Of a stretch of 64,000 nt of DNA, positions 32,648 through 51,372 are shown piece by piece; the stretch's first letter is position 1, and every line of letters begins with the position of its first letter. The stretch lies in NCBI GenBank assembly GCA_026125285.1, contig JAHCLO010000003.1, positions 228,661 to 292,660 on the forward strand. The letters are read 5' to 3'. The translations under genes were made by a program, and so were the position numbers. The notes under the pieces were generated by a model. The model was not told the origin of the DNA, searched no databases, and saw nothing but the letters and a program-made list of their open reading frames with translations. The DNA comes from Verrucomicrobiia bacterium (GTDB lineage Bacteria > Verrucomicrobiota > Verrucomicrobiia > Limisphaerales > JADLHS01).

Positions 32648-34030
32648 TCAATTCGAGCCGGTTCGGATACTGAAGCTGGTGCTGTCGCTTGACCGAGTCT
32701 CGGATGCTGCGGCGAGAGCAGAGCGTTCATTCGGCACGAGTCCGGTCATGAGATTGTGAATTGCATCGGCCCCAATGGCCACGCTATGCATGATGATACC
32801 CGCCTCATCAATAAGATAGGCGATGGGGGTGGCGAACATGGCGTAAGGGCGAGAGATCTCCCATTGCTGCTGCAACAGCACTGGGAAGGTTAGTCCGTGT
32901 TCCTTGACTTTCGCGCGGTTCTCCTTTGGCTCGCCTTTGCTGATCATCACAACGACGACCTTCCCCTCACCCGGCCTGTCGGCCACCCTCTCCCCATCGG
33001 ACGGGGAGAGGGACTGATCAGTGGCGAGTTGCTGCCGATGAAACTTTTCCAACTCCGGCGCCAGTGTATTGCACGGACCACAACCCGGACTGGAGAACAC
33101 CAGCAACACGCGTTTGCCGCGCATCTCGCTTAACGTCAAGTCACCGCGTCCGTCCAATCGCGGCAGACGGAAATCCGGCGCGGGTGTGCCGGCTTTCAAA
33201 CCGTCGCGCCTGAGCTTGCTGCGCGCGAGTGAGCGATCACCAAAGCGGCTCGCGTGGCCGTTTCCCTCGGTAGCAGCCGACGTGAGCCGGCTCTGATCTT
33301 CCTCGTTCTTCGGACCTCGGACTTTGCCCTTTGCTTCAGCCAGCGCCAGCAATGCCTCCGCGCCCAGTGCCAGCGCGCTGACAATCTTACCTTCGGCGCT
33401 GATCAAATAACCCGATGGCGTGCCGGTTGCCTGATAAGCGGCGGCAACCTCGCCATCGTTTTGCAACAGGACGGGACAACTGATTTTGTGCTCGGCAAAC
33501 AACTGGCGGTTCTTCTCCGCGTCGCCGGTGGTGATGATGAGCAGGCGTGGCGGCAGGCATCCCTGCCTGCCGTTGAGCCGGGCTTCCAGCCCGGCGGAAT
33601 TGGCCTCCGCTCGCGCAGGAGAGCTGAAACTTTCCTGGTACTCAACCGAAGCGGGGAGCGTTCCGGGCGGCAGGATGCCGCCCTCTACGGCAGGCTGGAA
33701 GCCCACCGCCACAAGCTTTGGCAGCATCTCTCGACAAAAGCCGCAGTCGGGATTGAAGAAGATCAACAGCACCGACTTCCCGCGGAAACCCGCCAGCGAC
33801 TTGCGCCCGCCCGCCAGGTCCGCCAACTCGAACGCTGGCGCCTCACTGCCGACCGGCAATCCCTCCGGCTCATCGGCACCGCCGAATTCAAGATCGTTAA
33901 GACGATTTTCCAGTTCATCCAGCCGCAGCAGGATGCGCCCGTTCTCCCGGAGCAGTTGCCAGACGAGGCCGATGCCCGTGAAGGTGAGCAACCCGACTAA
34001 AGCTGTCGCTGCAATTTCACTAATTGTCAT
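32648..34030 (-). CDS. Membrane-anchored double thioredoxin protein, MauD-like
   Basis: A 460-aa protein: one helix (ALVGLLTFTGIGLVWQLL), a short coiled segment ENGRILLRLDELENRLNDL, then two redoxin (AhpC/TSA-type) domains. Each has a CxxC site: FFNPDCGFCREMLP near residue 97 and FSSPGCGPCNTLAP in the second. The anchor plus first domain resemble MauD, which makes disulfides in methylamine dehydrogenase small subunits. Two repeat units (33549-33712 and 32962-33013) are read in frame within the two domains. It closes the run of Tat-leader cysteine-rich genes, so it is a good candidate for their oxidase or isomerase. Start chosen at the ATG with a GGGA before it; a GTG lies six codons upstream. 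Confidence 0.88.
   Translation of the reverse strand: MTISEIAATALVGLLTFTGIGLVWQLLRENGRILLRLDELENRLNDLEFGGADEPEGLPVGSEAPAFELADLAGGRKSLAGFRGKSVLLIFFNPDCGFCREMLPKLVAVGFQPAVEGGILPPGTLPASVEYQESFSSPARAEANSAGLEARLNGRQGCLPPRLLIITTGDAEKNRQLFAEHKISCPVLLQNDGEVAAAYQATGTPSGYLISAEGKIVSALALGAEALLALAEAKGKVRGPKNEEDQSRLTSAATEGNGHASRFGDRSLARSKLRRDGLKAGTPAPDFRLPRLDGRGDLTLSEMRGKRVLLVFSSPGCGPCNTLAPELEKFHRQQLATDQSLSPSDGERVADRPGEGKVVVVMISKGEPKENRAKVKEHGLTFPVLLQQQWEISRPYAMFATPIAYLIDEAGIIMHSVAIGADAIHNLMTGLVPNERSALAAASETRSSDSTSFSIRTGSN
32962..33013. repeat. Family E repeat inside the double thioredoxin gene
   Basis: The stretch resembles the apbE linker repeat (TCCCCTCACCCGGCC..., CTCTCCCCATCGGACGGGGA) and is translated on the minus strand as SLSPSDGERVADRPGEGK in the second redoxin domain, between a helix and the next strand (VVVVMIS). 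Confidence 0.75.
33549..33712. repeat. Palindrome cluster inside the double thioredoxin gene
   Basis: Contains four short palindromes (GGCAGGCATCCCTGCCTGCC, GCCGGGCTTCCAGCCCGGC, GGGCGGCAGGATGCCGCCC and a GGCTGGAAGCCC arm) arranged as an inverted pair. It is read in frame and adds about 50 residues to the first redoxin domain, between LPKLVAVG and LLIITTGD. Confidence 0.78.
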
Positions 34031-34174
34031 ACTATCCCAATTGTTCACAGCGTTTGTCGCACGCCTGTTTGGAAATTTCGGTACTGGTCATGCAAACGGC
34101 AACCCTGCCCTGACAGCCAAGATCACAAACCTGACCAACGTTTGCCTGGTTCGCCACCAGCCTGGGACAAGGCG

Positions 34175-35257
34175 TCATTCCGGAGTCTTTGCGATGAGAT
34201 TGAGCAACAGTTGCCAATTGTCGCAATCGCCATATTTAACGTCTCCGAGCCAGTTCCACCAAAGTGACTGCCCCAGCGCGACGACTTGCCCCTTGCCGTG
34301 TCGGCCGGCTGCTACGAATCCCTCGCCGGGATATTGCGGCGCCTTAACCAGGATTCGGCCCTTCGACTTGTCGGTAACGGCGATAGGCGATGGACGAAAA
34401 CATTTGACCCTGCGCACCGACTTCGTGAGCGGATCCTTGAGGATAACACTTCCTGTTAGCTCGATCGGTTTGGGGTCATTGGGCTCGGAGTCGGTCATCC
34501 GTAGTCCGGCTGGAACCAGGAGTTGATTAGCCCTGTCCACCGTGCCTTGAAAGAAGGAGTTCGCACAAACCAGCAGCCTTCCGCCGTCATTTACGAATTG
34601 CTTCAGCTTCGCGATGTCCGCGTCTTGAAGGCGCAATAGGCCATACTCACCGAGGAGAACTACGCCGTAATCCGACAAGTCGAGATCACGCAACACGGGT
34701 TGATCTCGAACAACATTGAGGTAATCAGGGTTGAGTTTGGCTGATTCAACCAAACGCAGCCAGGGATCGAAAACCGTGGCGTCGCCAGTTGAGGAGGAGC
34801 TAAAGGGAGTCGAGACAATCAGGATGCGCGTGGCCGAGGCGTCAGGGGTCCGTACGTTTACCTTGACCGGGATCGTTGTCTTTTGGAGACCAACGGCCAC
34901 CGCAAGCGTCCCCGCGTGCTCGCCCATTTCCTCCGAGCTAACCGCCACGTTAATACAGAAGTCACTTTTGGTAATGCCGCTGCGGTCAGTGGCTGTCCCA
35001 CGTCGAATGCTGGTGACCTTTAGGAACGGCGGTGGCTCCACGTCGCATGACAGATCTGCGCTCTCTTCGGCATCCGTGAAGACCAGGATGCTCCCCTCGA
35101 CCGTGGCCCCCATTCGAACTGAACCAAAGTCGAGTCGGTCCGGCTGCGATTTGCCATCCGCGGACTCACCAAAAAGCAAGGCCGACGACATGGTAAGGGA
35201 AAAGGCGAGATACGCGGCGCACATCAGCCTACGGCCACAATTGGGTTCAACAATCAT
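34175..35257 (-). CDS. Secreted protein: ASH-like domain plus GATase-like domain
   Basis: A 360-aa protein with a signal peptide (LMCAAYLAFSLTMSSALLFG). Residues about 40-140 form an immunoglobulin-like ASH/DUF1573-type domain (RLDFGSVRMGATVEGSILVF...GTLAVAVGLQKTTIPVKVNV). The second half resembles the class I glutamine-amidotransferase-like fold of ThuA/DUF4350 proteins: RILIVSTPFSSS, YGVVLLGEYGLLRLQDADIAKLKQFVNDGGRLLVCAN, GRHGKGQVVALGQSLWW. No catalytic Cys-His-Glu triad is evident. It starts 12 bp after the 64-aa stub gene, so it is in the cysteine-rich peptide run. Confidence 0.78.
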   Translation of the reverse strand: MIVEPNCGRRLMCAAYLAFSLTMSSALLFGESADGKSQPDRLDFGSVRMGATVEGSILVFTDAEESADLSCDVEPPPFLKVTSIRRGTATDRSGITKSDFCINVAVSSEEMGEHAGTLAVAVGLQKTTIPVKVNVRTPDASATRILIVSTPFSSSSTGDATVFDPWLRLVESAKLNPDYLNVVRDQPVLRDLDLSDYGVVLLGEYGLLRLQDADIAKLKQFVNDGGRLLVCANSFFQGTVDRANQLLVPAGLRMTDSEPNDPKPIELTGSVILKDPLTKSVRRVKCFRPSPIAVTDKSKGRILVKAPQYPGEGFVAAGRHGKGQVVALGQSLWWNWLGDVKYGDCDNWQLLLNLIAKTPE

Positions 35258-35269
35258 GCCATGTTACTT

Positions 35270-35464
35270 TCATGAGCAAGCGTGGAATCGGGTTCTGGTG
35301 GCAAACTCGTCCAGTCTCTCGCCTTCGCCGAACTCAAAGTGGTCCAACCGCTTTTCCAGTTCATCCAACCGCAACAGAATGCGGCCGTTCTGGCGGAGCA
35401 GTTGCCAGCTGAACCAGCAAAGCGCCAAGAGGACCGCCCCAGTCGCTGTGAGCAGCAGGGTCAT
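35270..35464 (-). CDS. 64-aa membrane stub homologous to the MauD-like anchor
   Basis: Encodes MTLLLTATGAVLLALCWFSW followed by QLLRQNGRILLRLDELEKRL and a short tail ending in FHACS. The helix plus coiled segment are nearly the same as the N-terminus of the double thioredoxin protein at 32648-34030 (QLLRENGRILLRLDELENRL), but no thioredoxin domain follows. The ATG overlaps the TGA of the cysteine-rich gene upstream as ATGA, so translation is coupled. It is either a truncated paralogue or a small membrane partner of the thioredoxin protein. Confidence 0.68.
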   Translation of the reverse strand: MTLLLTATGAVLLALCWFSWQLLRQNGRILLRLDELEKRLDHFEFGEGERLDEFATRTRFHACS

Positions 35465-35805
35465 AATGTGAACGAACAAGGCGAATTCCTTTTGTAGCAT
35501 CCGCATGGCGCATCCGTGACTCCGCCATTGACCGCCTTGCCCCTTGGAGAATCCGGAGAGGCCGTTGCAATGCAGCCATTGGTGTCTAGGCAAAAACCAT
35601 CGTAAGCCCATTTGTAATGGAATTTCTGCGTGGACACCGCTCGGACACTGCAATAACCGGTGTGTGTTGCAGCTTTTGCCTGGTTCGCCGGCTCGAAGCA
35701 GGCCAGCGCCATGCCCGCGAGACCGACACCAAATTTCTTCAACGCTGCACGGCGGGTTAGCGATTGGACCAGGCTCTTGGCGAGTTCATCGAACGCGTTG
35801 CTCAT
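35461..35805 (-). CDS. Tat-leader cysteine-rich secreted protein (69-aa cargo, 6 Cys)
   Basis: A 114-aa precursor. The first 45 residues are the shared leader, with SLTRRAALKKFGVGLAGMAL and a cleavage-like site after NQAKA. The cargo of 69 residues has six cysteines (GYC, FC, GC, PCGC, PC), an even number that suits three disulfides, and aromatic stretches (KFHYKWAYDGF). I do not recognise the cargo family. A start nine codons upstream is possible, but the chosen ATG gives a leader of the same length as its neighbours. It overlaps the stub gene that follows. Confidence 0.75.
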   Translation of the reverse strand: MSNAFDELAKSLVQSLTRRAALKKFGVGLAGMALACFEPANQAKAATHTGYCSVRAVSTQKFHYKWAYDGFCLDTNGCIATASPDSPRGKAVNGGVTDAPCGCYKRNSPCSFTL

Positions 35806-35980
35806 ACGGTTCAGTTTATTTGTTGCCATGTTGGCCTCCCAGTTGCCGGCGGGCAGCAGCAGTCAGGAAATCCTCATGAATCTGTAGATTCGTCCAGACG
35901 CAACCTGATACGCACCCACGAAATCCCCCGCGTTGAGCCGGCCCCAACTCCCAACATGGCGAAGCCGTCAGCGTGTCGAC

Positions 35981-36223
35981 TCAGCGGCACGCTACAAGGC
36001 AATAATTCCGACATTCGTACTCTGACCAGGTAGGATATTTGCGAAGGCACTGCCTGATGCAGATCTCGCATTTGGGCTCCTTCTTTGCCGCCTCTGCCCG
36101 GTTCGCCAGTCCAAAGCAAGCCAGCGCCATGCCAGCCAGGCCGAAGCCGAATTTCTTCAGCGCCGCCCGCCGCGTGACCGATTGGGCCAGGCTTTTGGTG
36201 AGTTCGTCGAATTGGTGATTCAT
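35981..36223 (-). CDS. Tat-leader cysteine-rich peptide, helical-hairpin-like (6 Cys)
   Basis: An 80-aa precursor with the 45-residue leader (MNHQFDELTKSLAQ, SVTRRAALKKFGFGLAGMAL, ending NRAEA). The 35-residue cargo has the spacing C-x2-C-x3-C-x11-C-x3-C-x3-C. The two C-x3-C units joined by 11 residues are the arrangement seen in alpha-hairpinin peptides, with one extra outer cysteine pair here. Charged residues are frequent (KKEPK, IRQ, LRK). Function unknown; a secreted antimicrobial, inhibitor or signalling peptide is possible. Confidence 0.72.
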   Translation of the reverse strand: MNHQFDELTKSLAQSVTRRAALKKFGFGLAGMALACFGLANRAEAAKKEPKCEICIRQCLRKYPTWSEYECRNYCLVACR

Positions 36224-36281
36224 ACTGTTGCTTCCGTTTTGGTTGTTTGTTGTTCGTTGGGAAAGTGGGATTAACGTGCGG

Positions 36282-37253
36282 CTAGATTTCACCAGCTTCA
36301 ACCCGCGCAATCACATCGTTGATGAAGTCGAGGACCAAGGCCGTGTCCACCCGGCAATTGTGGCCGTTGGTCAGGGTGCCGCGACAAACGACGGCCACAA
36401 AGGTTTCCTGGCTTGTAACTGGGTCCACAAAAAACAATGGTCCTCCCGAATCGCCTCTGCTGCTCGCCCCGTTATCACGCTCCTCGGTATACAACCATTG
36501 ATCGTGGAGATTCCGAAATTCGATTTGCGCCGATCGGCGGTGTCCATCCGGAGGAAACGGTTGGTGCCCATAATTGTTATCACCCGCATCAACCCCATAA
36601 CCAACGACCGTGAACCCGGTTCGATCTGAAGTCGTCTTCAGTTTGCCGGCGTCCTTCAGGGCATCCAAAACATTCAAGGTCGGCAATGGAAGCGGAGTGA
36701 TTCCCGCGACCGGTTCATCGAAGATCAAGACCCCCACGTCGGCTCCGCCGCTGGCCCCGTTGCTGGGATTGTTGACGAAATCCGGGTGAGTCAACATGCC
36801 GGAAACGGGTCGCCACGTGCCGGGGTCGGTCGCGTCGGCGGCGAAACTAACGAGGAGGTCGTCGAGGGTCATGGCGCCTTGTGCCATGAGGCTTTCGACG
36901 AGCAGCGTTCCATGTCCGGCGGTGAGGTACACGCGGGGATGAATCAGCGTTCCGGATCCGCCAAACATCGGCGCTGGTATTCCCGGGATTGGGCTTACCA
37001 ACCACACCACGCCTCCGACATTGGGATGCGCATCGCCATCGAGTTGCCCGTTGGTGATAGCATGGGCTTCGCGCAGTCCGAGCCGCATCAGCGCCATGCC
37101 CGCAAGGCCGACGCCGAATTGCTTCAGCGCCGCGCGGCGCGTGACCGATTGCGCCAGGTTCTTGGTGAGTTCACCCCGTGAGAGAGCGGCCGGCGGTCGC
37201 CGAAAGCTCAGTGAGCAGTTTCTCTCACGGGGTGAATCGAATTGGTGGTACAT
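36282..37253 (-). CDS. Tat-leader trypsin-like serine protease
   Basis: A 323-aa precursor of the S1 (trypsin) family. The catalytic triad is visible: LTAGHG (His about 114), GGADVGVLIFD (Asp about 172) and RGDSGGPLFF (Ser about 269). The chain after the leader begins ITNGQ, similar to the IxNG/IVGG end of mature trypsins. The leader ELTKNLAQSVTRRAALKQFG matches the neighbouring cysteine-rich precursors but is interrupted after MYHQFD by 21 residues encoded by a palindromic repeat. It may process or accompany the cysteine-rich peptides. Confidence 0.88.
   Translation of the reverse strand: MYHQFDSPRERNCSLSFRRPPAALSRGELTKNLAQSVTRRAALKQFGVGLAGMALMRLGLREAHAITNGQLDGDAHPNVGGVVWLVSPIPGIPAPMFGGSGTLIHPRVYLTAGHGTLLVESLMAQGAMTLDDLLVSFAADATDPGTWRPVSGMLTHPDFVNNPSNGASGGADVGVLIFDEPVAGITPLPLPTLNVLDALKDAGKLKTTSDRTGFTVVGYGVDAGDNNYGHQPFPPDGHRRSAQIEFRNLHDQWLYTEERDNGASSRGDSGGPLFFVDPVTSQETFVAVVCRGTLTNGHNCRVDTALVLDFINDVIARVEAGEI
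37170..37236. repeat. Palindromic repeat inserted in the protease leader
   Basis: Perfect 16-base inverted ends TTCACCCCGTGAGAGA (37170-37185) and TCTCTCACGGGGTGAA (37221-37236). Compared with the uninterrupted leader genes, the net insertion is 63 bp, a multiple of three, so the reading frame is kept. Confidence 0.88.
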
Positions 37254-37346
37254 ACTTATTCACTTTTCGACCTATGCCCTCATTAGCGACCCGCGACCTC
37301 TCAACTGCAAGCCCGCGCGCAGGCCGCGTGAGTTTTCGCGTGGCAT

Positions 37347-37604
37347 TCAGGTGCAGTAGCCGTGTTTACTTATGCCGAGCGCGATGGGGGATCTGTTACA
37401 GAAGCCACTACAGCATTGATTCCCGTTCGAACACTGGCTACCACTGGGCCCGCAGTTGCCTTTCCCGCCCGCTTCAGTTTTGTTCGCCAGCCCGAAGCAG
37501 GCCAGCGCCATGCCCGCGAGGCCGAGGCTAAATTTCTTCAGCGCCGCGCGGCGCGTGACCAATTGGGCCAAACCCTTGGTGAGTTCATCGAATTGGTTGT
37601 TCAT
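37347..37604 (-). CDS. Tat-leader cysteine-rich peptide, knottin-like (6 Cys)
   Basis: An 85-aa precursor with the 45-residue leader (MNNQFDELTKGLAQ, LVTRRAALKKFSLGLAGMAL, ending NKTEA). The 40-residue cargo has C-x6-C-x5-CC-x3-C-x14-C, which is the cysteine framework of inhibitor cystine knots (knottins), with a slightly long last loop; segments are NCGPSGSQCSNGNQCCSGFC and HGYC. It is Gly/Ser/Asn rich as many knottins are. It is the first gene of the run on this strand. Function unknown. Confidence 0.75.
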   Translation of the reverse strand: MNNQFDELTKGLAQLVTRRAALKKFSLGLAGMALACFGLANKTEAGGKGNCGPSGSQCSNGNQCCSGFCNRSPIALGISKHGYCT

Positions 37605-37969
37605 ACTTGGTCGTTCCATTTGTGCGACCCCTCGCGAGGTCACGGTTGTTCGTGTATTGCTTCAGCATGGGCTGTTACCCCTTACAACAGGAAAGCCGGA
37701 AGAACCTTACAGAGAATTTTCAAGCCTCCGAGATTCAGCGCGGCAAGGGGAATTTGGCGGTTCCGGTGGCTGGTCTCAATTCAGGGAGCTTGGGTTACCG
37801 GGTGAACTTTCCCTGAACAAATTGGCCCATCGAACCGCTCGACGGAAGCTGGCGTTGTAGCGCGGGCGTCCTCGCCGGCGGGTTCGGGCGGCGTCCCGCC
37901 GCCAGTGGAAGGGACGCGCACCGGGACGGTGCTGGAACCCGCAGCCGGGGGACGACTGCTCTACGGGGT

Positions 37970-40900
37970 TTATGGCGAGGCGGAGAGTCTTGCCGGATAG
38001 GGCGGCTGATTCCAATCGAGGTTCATTTCGGCCAGTTGCCGCCGAATCAGGCGCAAATCCCACACGCGCAAGGCGTCGGCCGATTCGCTGGCGAACAGTT
38101 GGCAACCGTCTGCGCTGAAAACCAGCCCGGTGATCGTTCTTGAGTCTGGCGCTTCGAGGTTCGCCAACACTTCGCCCGTGGCCGCATCGTGCAATCGGAT
38201 TTTGTTCCCTGCATAAGAACCGGCGAAAAGTTTCCCTTCGCGCGAGAAGGCCATCCGTGAAAGAAACTTCCCATCAGGCTGAGGCGGAATGTGGAGGAAC
38301 AGCGACCAGGAACCGACTTGCCAGAAGAAGTAGCCTGACGGAGTCGCCGTCACAACTTGCCGGTCATCCGGGCTGAACGCCACGGTGGTGGCGGTATTCT
38401 CGCCCTCCTCCTCGACCAGCAGCTTCATGTTCAATCCTCCGGTATAAGCATCCCAAACTCGCACACCTCCATAGTGCCAGGCCCCGCTGGCGATCACCGA
38501 ACCGTTCGCATTGATGGCGCCGAACCGCATGCCGGGCTGAACCTCCGTCTCCGCTTGCTTCGCGAAGGTGTCCGTGCGGAAAATCTGGCAGCGGTCGTTG
38601 CCAACGATGGCGCAGACCCGACCGTCAGCGGACATCCAGCCCATGCGGGGGCCTGATGGATCGGCACACTCGGCGTTTACGAGCATCGGTTTTTCAAGAT
38701 TCCGCACCGCGCCCGCCTCGGATTTGGTGATCTGGCTGCGAAACAGACCTTCCGGTCCCGTGAGAATCAGATGCTCCGAGCGTTCGTCGAACCCGATCAC
38801 GGCTTTGCCATTGTGCAACTGGTCGGAACCGAGCGGACGCGCAGTCGGCACATCCCAAAGCTTAATGCCTTCCTGAGTTCTGAACGCCAGGAGCTTTCCG
38901 CTCGCGTCCATGACCGGTTCGCCGCCACCGCTGCCGCGGGCATCCGGCGCTTCGTGCAGGGTTCTCAAACATTGCCCACGCGCCACTTCGAGAAACTCCA
39001 GGACCACGCCATCCCAGCCGCCGTGGGCCAGACGCAGGCCTTCCGGGTCAAATCCCCAGAGGTGACCCGAAGTAAGGATCGCGGAAAGTTGGCGGCCACG
39101 ATCAAAGTCCCACAACCGCGTGTAACCGTCCCAGCCCGAGGAGGCCAGCATTTCGCCTGCGGGATCGAAACGCACGCGGATGCAGGATTCGGTTGGCCAC
39201 GTGCGAAGCCGTGCGCCACTGAGCGCATCCCAAAGGTGAATCGTCTTGTCCCCGCAGCCAATGGCCAGGCGACGGCCGTCTGGATGCCAGGCCACGTGCC
39301 ACGCAAAGCTGGCGTGTTGAAGGGTGGCCAGCGTCTGGCCGGTTCGGAGGTCCAGGATCAAAACGTTGGTCCCCGCCTCGGTGTTAAACAGGGCGAGCCG
39401 TTGCCCGGAAGGATCAATCTCGAGCGCGCCGGGCGCGCGGGACGAACCCAGCCCGTTCAGGGAGAACTGGCGAAGGCGCTCCCCGCTCGCCAGGTCGTGC
39501 AACACAATGCTGGTGCCATCCGAGACCCCCACCGTCTTGCTGTCCGAAGTGAAATCAACGTGCCACACACTAACAAGCGTGACTGCGCTCGCTGCCGCCG
39601 CCCAATCCCAGATTCGCCAACGGCCATCGGCATAACCCACCGAGAGGAACTTGCCGTTCGGGCTGAAGGCGGTCAAGGCGACCGCCGCGCTTCCCGTATC
39701 CGGCAACCGCCCCACCACAGTGTCGTCCGCCACCCGCCGGATGCTGACGCCGCCGGTCGGTTCGCTGAGGGCATATCGCTGAAAGCTGGGATCGACTGAA
39801 ATCTTCTGGCGGGTCTTGGTATAGTCTTTGCCTCCAACCCGTCGGAGATCGCGCAATACCATGGCGGCGATGGCTTCATTCCGGAGTGCTAACGAGGGGC
39901 GAATCGCGGCGGCGTTACTGAGTACCGCCAGACTGTCGAAATGCCGGCCGGATAGGCCGCTGAACCGGAGCGCACGCCCTTCCGAGAGATAGGCCGACCG
40001 CAAGTTGTCCTGGGCTTCCTGGTGCAACCGGCTTTGCACCCGCTCAGCTTTCGTGGCACGAACCGCCTGCCAAGTGCTCACGGTGACACCCGCCGTAAGA
40101 AGGACGATGATCGCCGCGGTAGCACCGAAACCGAATTTATGACGCCGGACGGTTTTTTGAAATTCGTAGAGCTTGCTGGGTGGACGAGCCAGCACCGGCT
40201 CGTTGTTCAGGTGGCGTTGGATGTCGCTGGCCAGGCCATTGGCGGTTTCGTAGCGCCGCGCGCGGTCTTTCTCCATGCACTTCATCACGATCCAGTCCAA
40301 GTCGCCGCGAAGTGAGTGAATGAGTTCCTGAATCTGCCCGTAGCGGCGTCTCGGTAGAGCGCCGCCATTTTCGCTGGTGGAGTCAGCGGCACTCTTCCGA
40401 GGTGCCGCTACGAGTTCCTGAGTCAGCCGTGTGCTGGGTTTGACCGGTTCGACTTCGCGGATCGTGCGGCGCATTTCATCCAAACCGGCGGCGACCAATT
40501 CCTTTGTGTCAAACGGAGTCGTGCCGGTAAGCAGTTCGTAAAGCAGCACGCCCAGGCTGTAGATGTCGCTGCGGGTGTCCACGTCCAGCGAACCCAATTG
40601 CGCCTGTTCCGGACTCATGTAGGCCGGCGTGCCGAGAAATTGCTCGAACGCGGTGAACAGCGTTTCATCCGTGAGCCGGCCTTGCGTGGCTTTGGCGATG
40701 CCGAAATCAATCACCTTGGGAACCGGCACGCCGTCCTGCGTCGCCACCAGAACGTTTGAGGGCTTGATGTCGCGATGGATGATGCCTTTTTGATGCGCGT
40801 GTTGGATGGCACGACAGACCTGGATGAACAGGTCCAGTCGTTGGCGTGTCGTGAGTTGGTTCTGATTACAGTAGTCGGTAATCTTGATGCCGCCCACCAG

Positions 40901-41335
40901 TTCCATCACGAAGTAAGGTCGGCCGGTTTCCGTGGCGCCAGCATCGAGCACCCGCGCAATGTTGGGGTGATCCATCAAAGCCAGTGCCTGACGTTCGGCC
41001 TCGAACCGGGCCACCACTTGCCGGGTGTCCATCCCGAGCTTGATGACCTTGAGCGCAACCTTACGGCGAACCGGCTCTTCCTGCTTCGCCATGTAAACCA
41101 CGCCACACCCGCCGTGGCCAATTTCTTGCAGCAACCGGTAGCGGCCAATGCGGTCGCCGGCTTTCTCGGTCGTAATTTGAGATGCCGGAGGAGGGGCTGC
41201 TGATTCTGCCTCCGAAGGTGGTTCGGTTTTCGCAAGACCCAGATTGAGCAGGCATTGAGGGCAGAATCCGCCCGGGCTGTCAGTGGGGATCTTCGCGCCG
41301 CACTCGCGGCATTGGTTCTCTGCAGTCATGGCCAT
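37970..41335 (-). CDS. Ser/Thr protein kinase with WD40 repeats
   Basis: A 1121-aa protein. Order: a zinc ribbon (CRECGAKIP...FCPQC), a kinase domain from about residue 60 ([48 protein letters not shown]), one membrane helix near residue 405 ([19 protein letters not shown]), then WD40-type repeats to the end (for example [21 protein letters not shown]). Such kinases are common in Verrucomicrobia and Planctomycetes. A palindromic repeat (40340-40411) is read in frame between the kinase C-lobe subdomains. The ECF sigma gene lies just upstream in transcription order, a known pairing. Confidence 0.93.
40340..40411. repeat. Palindromic repeat, family F, inside the kinase gene
   Basis: Left arm GTAGCGGCGTCTCGGTAGAG and right arm complementary to GTAGCGGCACCTCGGAAGAG. 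The unit is flanked by a direct repeat GAGTTCCTGA (40322-40331 and 40412-40421). It is translated as a [17 protein letters not shown]-type segment before the conserved [14 protein letters not shown]. Confidence 0.78.
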
Positions 41336-41379
41336 TCCTTACAAACGGAATTGCGGGCAAACCTTACGGGTGACGCCCT

Positions 41380-42132
41380 TCATCCACTGAGCAGCGAGAT
41401 CAGGTAGCGAAGCTCTTCGTCCACCTCGGCTTCGGACGAAACCGTCTGCGCGACCTGCTCGCGCAACAGCACGCCGAAGCGTTGTTTCAGCCGGTGAACT
41501 GCCACGTCAATCGCGCCGACGCTGACGCCGCGCTTCGCGGCCAGTTCGGCCCGGGACACATTGCCTTGGCCTCCGGGAAGGAAGCCCTGCAAGTCGTCAA
41601 ACAGCTCCCTTTTTTCGTTTCGGTAATATTCACGGCGCAAGGCCTGCAGGGTCCGCTCCAGGAGCGCAAAGGCCCAGCGGCGTTCAAAGAGCGCCTCGGG
41701 AGTCCGCTGGTCGGCGGGCTCCAACGCATAACGCGCCTGCGCGTCGGCCGCATCCAAAGGAATGAGCGACCGGCCGCCGCCCCGGCGTTGGGCTTGAGCG
41801 CGTTCCCGTTCGTTGGCCAGGAAGTTCTTCAAGCAGACCAAAAGAAAGGAGCGGAACTTTCCCGCCGCCGGCCGCACACCGCTCAACGAGTCTCGCTCCA
41901 GGAAGCGAAAGAAAAATTCCTGCGTCAGGTCTTCAGCTTCGTGCGAAGCAATCCCGTTGCGCCGGATGTAGGCATAGAGCGGATACCAATACGTGGAGCA
42001 CAGACTGGCGAGGGCTTCCTGTGCGAGTGCGCCGTCTTTGTCGCGGGCTGCCAGCACCATGGTCCAGTGGGTCGTGTGAAAGCCCATTGCTGTCGCGGGC
42101 ACGTCAGCGCGCATCGGGGACTCCGGGGTCAT
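41380..42132 (-). CDS. ECF-type RNA polymerase sigma factor
   Basis: A 250-aa sigma factor: region 2 is EAEDLTQEFFFRFLERDSLS with KFRSFLLVCLKNFLANERERA; region 4 is NVSRAELAAKRGVSVGAIDVAVHRLKQRF, plus a C-terminal extension (EAEVDEELRYLISLLSG). This subgroup, with HTTHWTMVLAA near its start, typically stands beside Ser/Thr kinases, as here (45 bp gap to the kinase gene). The kinase could phosphorylate it or its partner. Start set at the ATG of MTPESPMRAD. Confidence 0.88.
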   Translation of the reverse strand: MTPESPMRADVPATAMGFHTTHWTMVLAARDKDGALAQEALASLCSTYWYPLYAYIRRNGIASHEAEDLTQEFFFRFLERDSLSGVRPAAGKFRSFLLVCLKNFLANERERAQAQRRGGGRSLIPLDAADAQARYALEPADQRTPEALFERRWAFALLERTLQALRREYYRNEKRELFDDLQGFLPGGQGNVSRAELAAKRGVSVGAIDVAVHRLKQRFGVLLREQVAQTVSSEAEVDEELRYLISLLSG

Positions 42133-42317
42133 GAAGGAGTCCTTACCAAAGGGAGCAACTTCAGTCAACAACGAGGCCTGTGAGGGAGGATTCGCCTTGA
42201 CAGATTCCGGGACGCTGGAATGAATGCCACGCAGCACAGAGGCTTCCCGATGTCAACGCTTTGAATTGGTCACGAGTTGCCTCGCCGGCAAAAGCCAGAC
42301 GCAGCAAACCGCGGAAT

Positions 42318-43736
42318 TCATCCCAATACCAGCGCCGCGTTGCTGTCACCGAACTTCTCCACCGGCGTGCCCATCTGCTCGAGCATCGAAACGTAGAGAT
42401 TGCAGAGCGGCGTGCCTTTCGGGCTGGCGATGTGGCGGCCGGTCTTGATTTTACCGCCACCGCGTCCGGCGAGGATGATGGGCAGGTTGGCGGGGTCATG
42501 GCGGTTGCCATCGGACATGCTCGAACCGAACAGCACCATGCTGTTGTCGAGCAACGTGCGTTCGCCTTCCTTGATCGCGGCCAGTTTGTCCATGAGATAG
42601 GCAAGCTGTTCGTTGTGCCAGCGATTGATTTTTGTGTAAGGCTCGTATTTTTCCGCCTTGTCCTGATGATGGCTGAATTCGTGGTGTCCGCCGCCCGCGC
42701 CGGGAATGAGCTTGCCGAAATTCTTTCCGGAAACGTCGTTCGCGAACATGAAGCTGCTGATACGCGTGCTGTCGGTCCAGAACGCGAGCACGATCAAATC
42801 CAGCATTAGGCGGACGTGCTCTTGATGGTCGCCGGGTTCGCCTTTCGGTGCGGCGATGTCTTCGCCCGGTTGCGTCTCTGGTTTCCAGGTGCGCGGGTCG
42901 GGCTTGGAGAAAAACTCCAGCCGCTTCTCCACGTCGCGCACGGCGTCGAGGTACTCGTCGAGTTTGTATTGATCGTCGCGGCCAAGACGGCTGCGAAGTC
43001 GGTTGGCATCGTTCAAGACGAGATCGAGCAGCGCTTTGCGGTCCTCTTGTTTGCGCTGGTCAGCGGCGGAAATGCGGTCGGCTTTCATCACGCTGAACAG
43101 CCGTTCGTACGCGAGACGCGGATTGATTTCCTTGGCGAGCGGCATGTTGGGTGAGCGCCATGAGATGTAACATCCGTAAAGGCGCGTGTAGCCGACGTTG
43201 GTGTCAATGCCCGAGATGACGGGATCAATGCCGAGTTCCAGGGAGGGCAGGGGAGTGAGAGGGCCAATTTGCTGCGCGCAAAGCTGGTCAATGGAAAGGC
43301 CGCCCACGCTGATGTCCTTGCCGGCGGTTTTGCGCACGGGCAGGCCGGTGAGAAAATTCGCCGTCTTCGCGTAATGCCCATCGCCCTGGTGGCTGTGTTG
43401 TTTGTCGAGGCCGGAGAAGACGAGAAGGTTTTCGCGATGTTTCGCCAGCGGTTCGAGGGCGAAGGGTAATTCAAAATCCGCGCCGTCGGTTTTGGGAAAC
43501 CAGTTTCGCTCCAGCACGCCGTTCGGGAAATAGATGCAGGCCATGCGAACCGGCGCTTGAACGTTGGCCGCCACCTTGGTCGAGGCGAGCGCGTCCGGCG
43601 CGGCGATGGCGGCAACCTTGCCCATCGCGTCGAGCAGCGGCAGGCCGAGCATGGCGCCGGCGCCTTTCAGGAAAGAACGGCGCGGCATGCGCCAGTTGCG
43701 TTCGAGGATTACGGGCGCCTTTTCGATTGTTTTCAT
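42318..43736 (-). CDS. DUF1552 secreted protein
   Basis: A 472-aa protein with a Tat-like signal MPRRSFLKGAGAMLGLPLLD. IYFPNGVLERNWFPK, LVFSGLDKQHSHQGDGHYAK, TNVGYTRLYGCYISWRSP, DSTRISSFMFANDVSGKNF and NSMVLFGSSMSDGNRHDPANLPIILAG identify DUF1552. These proteins pair with DUF1592 planctomycete cytochromes; the pair is thought to act in degradation of polysaccharides or related substrates, but this is not established. It begins 22 bp after the cytochrome gene. Confidence 0.93.
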   Translation of the reverse strand: MKTIEKAPVILERNWRMPRRSFLKGAGAMLGLPLLDAMGKVAAIAAPDALASTKVAANVQAPVRMACIYFPNGVLERNWFPKTDGADFELPFALEPLAKHRENLLVFSGLDKQHSHQGDGHYAKTANFLTGLPVRKTAGKDISVGGLSIDQLCAQQIGPLTPLPSLELGIDPVISGIDTNVGYTRLYGCYISWRSPNMPLAKEINPRLAYERLFSVMKADRISAADQRKQEDRKALLDLVLNDANRLRSRLGRDDQYKLDEYLDAVRDVEKRLEFFSKPDPRTWKPETQPGEDIAAPKGEPGDHQEHVRLMLDLIVLAFWTDSTRISSFMFANDVSGKNFGKLIPGAGGGHHEFSHHQDKAEKYEPYTKINRWHNEQLAYLMDKLAAIKEGERTLLDNSMVLFGSSMSDGNRHDPANLPIILAGRGGGKIKTGRHIASPKGTPLCNLYVSMLEQMGTPVEKFGDSNAALVLG

Positions 43737-49883: not shown

Positions 49884-49963
49884 CAGTAGAGTAGAGAGGC
49901 GCGCGGAAATGGAATTGAACCGACCGCAGTTGTCAGTATCCGCGCGCGCGCCTCTCCCTCGTC

Positions 49964-49996
49964 GAACCGGACATGGAGATTTCCCCCATCCGGCTC
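49964..49996 (-). ncRNA. Group II intron domain V
   Basis: Minus-strand hairpin GAGCCGGATGGGGGAAATCT followed by a loop and the closing CATGTCCGGTTC; 33 nt, close to the usual 34-nt domain V, the catalytic core of the ribozyme. Confidence 0.8.
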
Positions 49997-50025
49997 TCGC
50001 CAGAGACGTCTCTGCCAGAAAGCAT

Positions 50026-51372
50026 TCACAAGGCAATCAAGCCCAGGTGTTGCAGATGAGCATACAAGCTGACGCCTTCTCGGGCTCGCCACCCGCGCTG
50101 ACTGCGCCGTTTCAGGTGCTTGCCCAAGCGGCAGCGCACAAAATGGTTGAGGTCACGAAACGTCGCCCGCGGATATCCCAGACCAAAGTAATTGGCCCAG
50201 CCTCGCAGGTTTCGATTCAGTCGCCCAATCAACTCCGGCATCGGTGTATAGCACTGTTTGGCATTGATGAGCGCCCGCACCGCTTCCCGTTCCCGCTGCC
50301 TCGCCTTGCGGGAGGGTTGCAGGTTCCAATAGCGTTGCCGCCGCCCATACTGGTCCCGGTCATACCGAAAGGTGTAACCCAGAAAGTCCAGGCTCTGGCC
50401 GTGGCGCCGCAGGTCCAACACGCGAGTCTTCTCCCGGTTGATTTGCAATCCCAGCCAGCCTTCCAGTTTACCTTCAATCCAGCCCCGCAGTTGTGGACTG
50501 ATATAGCGGGCCATCACCACAAAGTCGTCCGCATAGCGAACCAGCTTCGCGTTGGCCCAGTGCGCTGGTCCGTCCCCACGCTCAAAGAGGTGGTCGAACC
50601 AGTGCAGATACACATTGGCCAGCAACGGACTCAAGACTCCCCCTTGCGGTGTGCCTTTGTCGTTGCGCCGCACCGTCGGCGGTTTGCCCTCTTTGCCCTC
50701 TTCCACCACCGGTGCTCTCAGCCACTGTTTGATCAGTCCCAGAACCGAGCCGTCCACCACGCGCATCCTCACACAGGCAATTAGTTTGTCGTGCGGTATG
50801 CTGTCGAAGTAGCCGGCAAGGTCCGCGTCGTATACTGCCGTTCGGCCCGTCTTGAGGTGCTCGCGGATGGTGCGCAGTGCGTCGTGTGCCGACCTGCCGG
50901 GTCGAAACCCGTAGGAACTCTCCTCGAAATCCGCTTCGAAGATCGGTTCCAGTATCAGCTTCACCGCCGCCTGCACCACCCGGTCTCGCACCGTCGGAAT
51001 GCCCAACGGCCGTTGTTTTCCATTGGGCTTGGGGATATAGACTCTGAGCACTGCTTTGGCCCGATACGTCCGTTCCTGCAAGCTCCGTTGGATCTCTTCC
51101 ACATACGCTGCCTCCCTTTCGGGCGTGGCCACGATTTGTTCGATGCTCACCCCATCTACTCCCGGTGCGCCCTCGTTGCGCCGAACCGCGGCCCATGCCG
51201 CTTCCAGCACGTCCCGCCGACACACCAGTCCGTAGAGGCTGTAGAAGCGAAACCGCTTCTGTTGTTTGGCTTTCTGTCCCAGCTTCTGTCTCAGTTCACG
51301 GACGCTCGGCGGCAGGATCGCTTCTCGAAACGAGATCTCGTCCACCGCTTGTTCTGTCGTAGAAGTCTTCAC
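50026..51372 (-). CDS. ltrA: Group II intron reverse transcriptase/maturase
   Basis: A 448-aa protein starting at GTG. Reverse transcriptase motifs: [86 protein letters not shown] and the catalytic YADD ([13 protein letters not shown]). The maturase (X) domain follows with [19 protein letters not shown]. No HNH endonuclease domain is present, so target choice may depend on replication forks or single-stranded DNA. The protein should help the intron splice and move. Confidence 0.95.

What the first reader, a model, noticed from the sequence alone, without database searches (positions are those of the whole stretch)
32648..37604. Array of genes with one Tat leader and hypervariable cysteine-rich or protease cargos, next to MauD-like thioredoxins
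Four genes (35461-35805, 35981-36223, 36282-37253, 37347-37604) share a 45-residue leader with the core TRRAALK, differing at only a few positions, but their cargos are unrelated: three different 6-Cys proteins and a trypsin-like protease. The same strand then carries a 64-aa MauD-anchor stub, a secreted ASH/GATase-like protein and a double thioredoxin membrane protein. Seen: sequence identity of leaders, Cys counts, CxxC sites. Known: Tat exports folded proteins; MauD makes disulfides in MauA, which also has a Tat-type leader. Inferred: the thioredoxin proteins form or proofread disulfides of the exported peptides, and the leader works as a common export and recognition tag for a fast-changing peptide set.
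Basis: partly seen in the sequence, partly recalled or inferred. Interest (0 to 1): 0.88.

Follow-up and report, generated by a model that had tools for sequence, protein, structure and literature searches.

The report
Mobile locus exporting shared-leader disulfide peptides
A verrucomicrobial genome carries a 9.7-kb transferable block with its own regulator, in which one shared export leader is attached to rapidly changing cysteine-rich peptides and enzymes beside a membrane thioredoxin; the leader-thioredoxin pairing recurs in a distant proteobacterium, suggesting an unrecognised way bacteria make and ship disulfide-rich proteins.

Summary
Four minus-strand genes share one 45-residue Tat leader (60-84% identical) in front of three 6-Cys peptides and a trypsin-like protease, followed by an anchor stub, an ASH/GATase-like gene and a double-thioredoxin membrane protein.

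The unit is larger than reported: a 9.7-kb island (about 32662-42328) that also holds an ECF sigma gene, a Ser/Thr kinase gene and a promoter-like repeat found nowhere else in the three carrier genomes. A same-genus relative has the empty site. Two other verrucomicrobial genomes carry the same order.

Leader and MauD-type anchor co-occur in exactly those 3 of about 313 order genomes. The pairing recurs in Caballeronia sp. NK8, where an intact double thioredoxin directly precedes a 14-Cys protein with a significantly similar leader.

Leaders are under purifying selection while cargos are saturated. One leader, marked by an insertion unique to the locus, carries a protease in one genome and a BNR propeller in another.

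Most likely: a regulated, horizontally moved secretion cassette in which the leader is the export/recognition tag and the thioredoxin handles cargo thiols. Direction of the redox chemistry and topology are unproven; MauA's leader is not measurably similar.

The parts
32662..42328 (.). Whole island: present/absent unit of about 9.7 kb
   Evidence: Empty site in same-genus G001 (L116): flanking genes adjacent with a 195-bp gap
32648..34048 (-). Double-thioredoxin membrane protein with MauD-type N-terminal anchor; CGFC and CGPC sites
   Evidence: Pfam AhpC-TSA/Redoxin; TIGR02661 MauD 59 bits, below cut-off; alignment with Caballeronia and MauD
34175..35257 (-). Secreted ASH-like/GATase-like protein, lying between anchor stub and thioredoxin gene
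   Evidence: DUF4350 E=7e-6, below cut-off
35270..35464 (-). 64-aa anchor stub, a partial duplicate of the thioredoxin N-terminus, at the place where the thioredoxin gene itself lies in AV5
   Evidence: 83-bp DNA repeat at 82%; L013 arrangement
35461..35805 (-). Tat-leader gene, 69-aa mature 6-Cys peptide ending CSFTL; its AV5 orthologue is also the last gene before the thioredoxin gene
35981..36223 (-). Tat-leader gene, 35-aa mature 6-Cys helical-hairpin peptide
   Evidence: AlphaFold2 pLDDT 88-94 over residues 51-80
36282..37253 (-). Tat-leader gene, trypsin-like protease with apparent triad (TAGH, DVGV, GDSGG)
   Evidence: Pfam Trypsin E=0.006, below cut-off; triad read from sequence
37170..37236 (-). 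Palindromic insertion inside the protease's leader, in frame; same element and codon in AV5 gene A2
37347..37604 (-). Tat-leader gene, about 40-aa mature knottin-like 6-Cys peptide (C-C-CC-C-C)
37680..37711 (-). Direct-repeat promoter-like motif TGTAAGGTT...TTGTAAGG upstream of the array
37970..41335 (-). Ser/Thr protein kinase with WD40 sensor-like C-terminus
41340..41367 (-). Same motif between the sigma-factor and kinase genes
41380..42129 (-). ECF-type sigma factor (start could extend to 42237)
   Evidence: Pfam Sigma70_r2 E=1.8e-5; relatives in L012 and L099 at 78% and 72% identity

Best explanation
A horizontally mobile, self-regulated secretion cassette. Shown: an ECF sigma factor, a Ser/Thr kinase, a locus-private promoter-like repeat, an array of genes with one conserved Tat leader and exchangeable Cys-containing cargos, and a MauD/TlpA-type membrane thioredoxin are conserved and present or absent together. 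Inferred: a signal sensed by the kinase activates the sigma factor, which transcribes the kinase and the array from the repeat; the leader sends each precursor to Tat and may also bring it to the thioredoxin; the thioredoxin domains control the redox state of cargo cysteines (oxidation or isomerisation after export, or keeping them reduced before it); SPase I cuts at the AxA site and releases small disulfide-locked peptides and enzymes. Cargos are replaced behind a fixed leader by recombination. The likeliest use is an inducible secreted arsenal against competitors or predators.
For: Same order ECF-kinase-motif-array-thioredoxin in the window, in AV5 (L012/L013; the contig ends inside the thioredoxin gene) and in G008 (contigs C188 and C93 share a 33-bp exact end overlap). 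Motif GTAAGGTTTN{7,11}TTCCNNTTGTA: 7 hits in three genomes (about 19 Mb), all in this locus. Empty site in the same genus. Leader and anchor found in the same 3 order genomes only. Caballeronia NK8: intact double thioredoxin followed 62 bp later by a 14-Cys Tat-leader protein; its leader N-region scores 17.1 bits against a generic Tat maximum of 6.9 (n=26), and 0 of 200,000 shuffles reach it. Small cargos have 6 or 12 Cys in 10 of 10. Leader dN about 0.05-0.11, dS about 0.35-0.6; in the CSFTL orthologues the cargo has saturated dS and dN 0.62. Same insertion-marked leader on different cargos. In the plasmid collection 31 records match P. denitrificans MauD: 30 also carry mauA/aauA, the other is Caballeronia.
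Against: No expression, proteomic or redox data. Thioredoxin topology unresolved; the positive-inside rule suggests the cytoplasmic side. No MauE/DsbB-like partner at the locus; MauE-like genes elsewhere in G000 have no such peptides nearby, and G069 has none detected. Two BNR cargos have an odd number of Cys. G008's thioredoxin protein has only one thioredoxin domain. The three verrucomicrobial loci are probably one inherited unit, so independent support for the leader-thioredoxin link is chiefly Caballeronia.
Confidence: 0.55

Rival explanations
1. The leader is an ordinary Tat signal that spread by tandem duplication; the thioredoxin is a general TlpA-like protein that sits nearby because the island was inherited whole.
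For: Tat leaders with a similar h-region are common (weak hits mostly on about 500-aa ORFs); leader copies are slightly more alike within than between genomes.
Against: The N-region FDELTK..AQSV is not found in the generic Tat set; the pairing recurs in another phylum with a matching N-region; the anchor is found only with the leader.
Confidence: 0.22
2. The thioredoxin domains face the cytoplasm and keep precursor cysteines reduced, or proofread them, before Tat export; oxidation happens later by other enzymes.
For: No positive charge before the transmembrane segment and three after it in the window, stub, AV5 and G008 anchors; MauD and Caballeronia anchors look the same by eye.
Against: The ResA/TlpA relatives are extracytoplasmic and MauD is thought to act in the periplasm (established knowledge, not tested here).
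Confidence: 0.2
3. RiPP-like system: leader and thioredoxin belong to a peptide natural-product pathway, with the large leader proteins as accessory factors.
For: decRiPPter found MauE/MauD genes next to precursors with at least 8 Cys in Streptomyces (PMC7794033); knottin-like cargo.
Against: No modifying enzyme other than the thioredoxin was seen; several leader genes encode proteins of 250-520 aa.
Confidence: 0.15
4. The leader is a Tat lipoprotein signal (ALAC), so cargos stay membrane-anchored.
For: Cys at position 36 in most leaders.
Against: Cys missing in the protease leader and in AV5 A4; an AxA site is present in most copies instead.
Confidence: 0.08

Closest known systems
mauE-mauD-mauA (methylamine dehydrogenase small-subunit maturation) and aau clusters
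   Same: Membrane-anchored CxxC thioredoxin next to a Tat-exported Cys-rich protein; similar anchor; MauD model E=4e-16 (window) and 2e-22 (Caballeronia)
   Different: Two thioredoxin domains, no MauE, no dehydrogenase; many unrelated cargos; MauA leader not significantly similar
decRiPPter MauE/MauD candidate RiPP families in Streptomyces (PMC7794033)
   Same: MauD/MauE-type genes with Cys-rich precursor genes and no methylamine metabolism
   Different: Actinobacterial bioinformatic candidates; the passages read describe no Tat leader shared across unrelated cargos and no ECF-kinase unit
ECF sigma / Ser-Thr kinase pairs (ECF43: EcfK-PknS, EcfP-PknT; PMC8999054)
   Same: Sigma factor gene beside a kinase gene; EcfK-PknS controls a secretion system used against amoebae
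   Different: Sigma region 2.2 here reads EAED, so the ECF43 phospho-switch is not indicated; the kinase C-terminus is WD40 in window and G008 but not in AV5
Conserved-leader/hypervariable-core peptide systems (RiPP precursors, conotoxins)
   Same: Constrained leader, fast-changing Cys-framework cargo
   Different: The leader is a Tat signal and is also carried by enzymes and propellers

Membership tests
MauD (TIGR02661) | Score at or above curated cut-off | tested here: not met
   59 bits (window) and 79.8 bits (Caballeronia) against 188.6
MauD (TIGR02661) | N-terminal membrane anchor plus CxxC thioredoxin domain | tested here: met
   alignment
Methylamine dehydrogenase gene cluster | mauA, mauB and mauE present at the locus | tested here: not met
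   no MauE hit at the locus; Pfam finds no light-chain domain in the window cargos; no dehydrogenase-like gene seen among the island ORFs
Tat signal peptide | Twin arginine, hydrophobic segment, AxA site | tested here: met
   TRR plus AxA in sequence; TIGR01409 hits reach 15.5 bits, just under the 16.7 cut-off
Tat signal peptide | Tat-dependent export | not testable with these tools
   needs experiment
RiPP | Leader-dependent post-translational modification of the core | not testable with these tools
   needs mass spectrometry
ECF43-type phospho-activated sigma factor | DAED motif missing in region 2.2 | tested here: not met
   window protein reads EAED there (sequence; rule from PMC8999054)
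Knottin (cargo 37347-37604) | C-C-CC-C-C framework | tested here: met
   C-6-C-5-CC-3-C-14-C read from sequence; weak PDB match to trypsin inhibitor 3, E=0.0096
Knottin (cargo 37347-37604) | Knotted disulfide topology | not testable with these tools
   needs structure

The most novel reading that the evidence does not exclude
A transferable peptide-arsenal module not described before, in which the N-region of a Tat leader (FDELTK ahead of RR) is a recognition code for a dedicated membrane double thioredoxin, so that any cargo gaining the leader is exported and disulfide-matured; cargos are swapped behind the leader and the set is switched on by its own ECF-kinase pair.
Probability: 0.3. Interest if true: 0.85.

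Novelty: new variant of a known kind. Interest (0 to 1): 0.72.

Why it matters
How bacteria oxidise small, Cys-dense secreted proteins, and what MauD does, are still open. This locus is a compact natural test system: one constant leader, many cargos, one thioredoxin, one private promoter-like element. If the leader does recruit the thioredoxin, it would give a portable tag for making disulfide-rich peptides in bacteria and a search handle for an overlooked set of secreted peptides.

Tried and rejected
Homology of the leader to MauA/AauA leaders: all begin with an FD motif, but N-region scores lie in the generic range and 5 of 27 generic Tat leaders also have FD, so it is not claimed. Other hits at E<=1e-3 in order and phylum: generic Tat signals, mostly on about 500-aa ORFs. 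Leader search in viral contigs and plasmids: none. MauE neighbourhoods elsewhere in G000: no leader peptides. Fold search with the hairpin model: no meaningful match. AlphaFold2 of the double thioredoxin: mean pLDDT 51, used only to note that the inserts are low-confidence. Thermomicrobium TlpA hit: no Cys-rich Tat gene annotated beside it. Wider genome search outside Verrucomicrobiota was not possible ('of' accepts only G handles; genome-contig scan used; metagenome cap 0).

Full report
What is there. The window lies in a verrucomicrobial genome of 7.16 Mb. On the minus strand, four genes share a 45-residue Tat leader. Their mature parts are a knottin-like 6-Cys peptide (37347-37604), a trypsin-like protease with 2 Cys (36282-37253), a 6-Cys helical hairpin (35981-36223; AlphaFold2 pLDDT 88-94 over the mature part) and a 6-Cys peptide ending CSFTL (35461-35805). 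Downstream lie a 64-aa anchor stub, an ASH/GATase-like gene and a double-thioredoxin membrane protein with CGFC and CGPC sites. Upstream, outside the reported range, lie a Ser/Thr kinase with WD40 repeats and an ECF-type sigma factor.

The unit. In a same-genus relative (G001) the genes on either side of the block are adjacent, 195 bp apart, with the surrounding synteny kept. Nucleotide alignment puts the breakpoints near 32661 and 42329. The block that is present or absent therefore runs from the sigma factor to the thioredoxin, which independently marks the functional unit. A repeat motif (GTAAGGTTTN{7,11}TTCCNNTTGTA) lies between the sigma and kinase genes and upstream of the array or of genes next to it; in three whole genomes its seven strict matches are all in this locus, with none for the reversed control pattern. 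The window's copy upstream of the array differs by one base.

Relatives. Profile search finds the leader at more than 60 bits in only three genomes of the order: this one, G008 (same family) and G069 (another family; taken to be the AV5 MAG, L012/L013, from matching positions). AV5 has at least nine leader genes: Cys-rich peptides, several BNR-propeller proteins and a 252-aa protein with 6 mature Cys, then the anchored thioredoxin. G008 has three Cys-rich peptides, a BNR protein with a decayed leader and a single-domain anchored thioredoxin protein; its contigs C93 and C188 overlap by 33 bp, which places ECF and kinase upstream. The MauD-type anchor is found only in the same three genomes among 313 of the order, and only in G000 in an even draw of 388 genomes of the phylum.

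Independent recurrence. tblastn in plasmids gave one full-length relative of the anchored domain: an unannotated 385-aa double thioredoxin on Caballeronia sp. NK8 pNK81, followed 62 bp later by a 278-aa, 14-Cys protein with leader ENQFDEWTKAVARRPSRRKTL. Anchored at RR, its N-region scores 17.1 bits on a matrix from the verrucomicrobial leaders; 26 generic Tat leaders reach at most 6.9 and none of 200,000 shuffles reaches 17.1. P. denitrificans MauD as query finds 31 plasmid records: by the organism and accession lists 30 also carry mauA/aauA, and the other is Caballeronia.

Evolution. Leader cores have dN 0.05-0.11 and dS 0.35-0.6, i.e. purifying selection. The one well-alignable orthologous cargo pair (CSFTL peptides) is 40% identical with saturated dS, while its leaders have dS 0.66; other cargo pairs align poorly and are not relied on. 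The window protease leader and the AV5 BNR gene A2 leader carry the same palindromic insertion at the same codon; in strict form the element occurs once per genome. Same leader, different cargo: the simplest reading is cargo exchange behind a fixed leader. Independent insertion at the same site is not excluded.

How it probably works. Shown: co-inheritance, conserved order, private motif, leader constraint, and Cys counts of 6 or 12 in all ten small cargos. Inferred: kinase-to-sigma signalling, Tat export, leader recognition by the thioredoxin, disulfide handling, release at AxA, antagonistic use. Other kinase-sigma pairs control defences, for example EcfK-PknS against amoebae (PMC8999054); that is analogy only. 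Membership of the MauD family is not claimed: the scores are far below the curated cut-off.

Doubts. Positive charges follow rather than precede the transmembrane segment, so the thioredoxin domains might face the cytoplasm. There is no MauE-like partner at the locus. The verrucomicrobial cases are one inherited unit, and Caballeronia is one case. The function of every cargo is unknown.

Background from memory: MauD and MauE are needed for stable MauA in Paracoccus (van der Palen et al. 1997, cited in PMC7794033).

Noticed in passing
window 32648-34048: Both thioredoxin domains carry long in-frame, low-confidence inserts (residues about 114-167 and 346-361) absent from the Caballeronia protein; they look like translated REP-type elements.
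   Followed up: partly
window 37170-37236: Palindromic element read in frame inside a signal peptide, reminiscent of Rickettsia palindromic elements.
   Followed up: yes
L012 762-3302 and window 37970-41335: The kinases share N-terminal parts but differ in their C-terminal sensor-like parts (WD40 in window and G008, not in AV5).
   Followed up: partly
L012 11394-12521: Endonuclease/phosphatase-like gene whose 5' end keeps only MNNKFDEL of the leader before another signal peptide: a leader remnant.
   Followed up: no
L011 2240-3730: BNR protein with a decayed leader that has lost the twin arginine.
   Followed up: no
L012 4473-5102, 12583-13131; L099 824-1423: Small secreted proteins of one family (GNCxxHAD-like motif), no Pfam match, recur inside the AV5 and G008 loci, two of the three directly behind the private motif.
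   Followed up: partly
window 49886-51372: Group II intron (Rfam) with an adjacent ORF, probably its reverse transcriptase.
   Followed up: no
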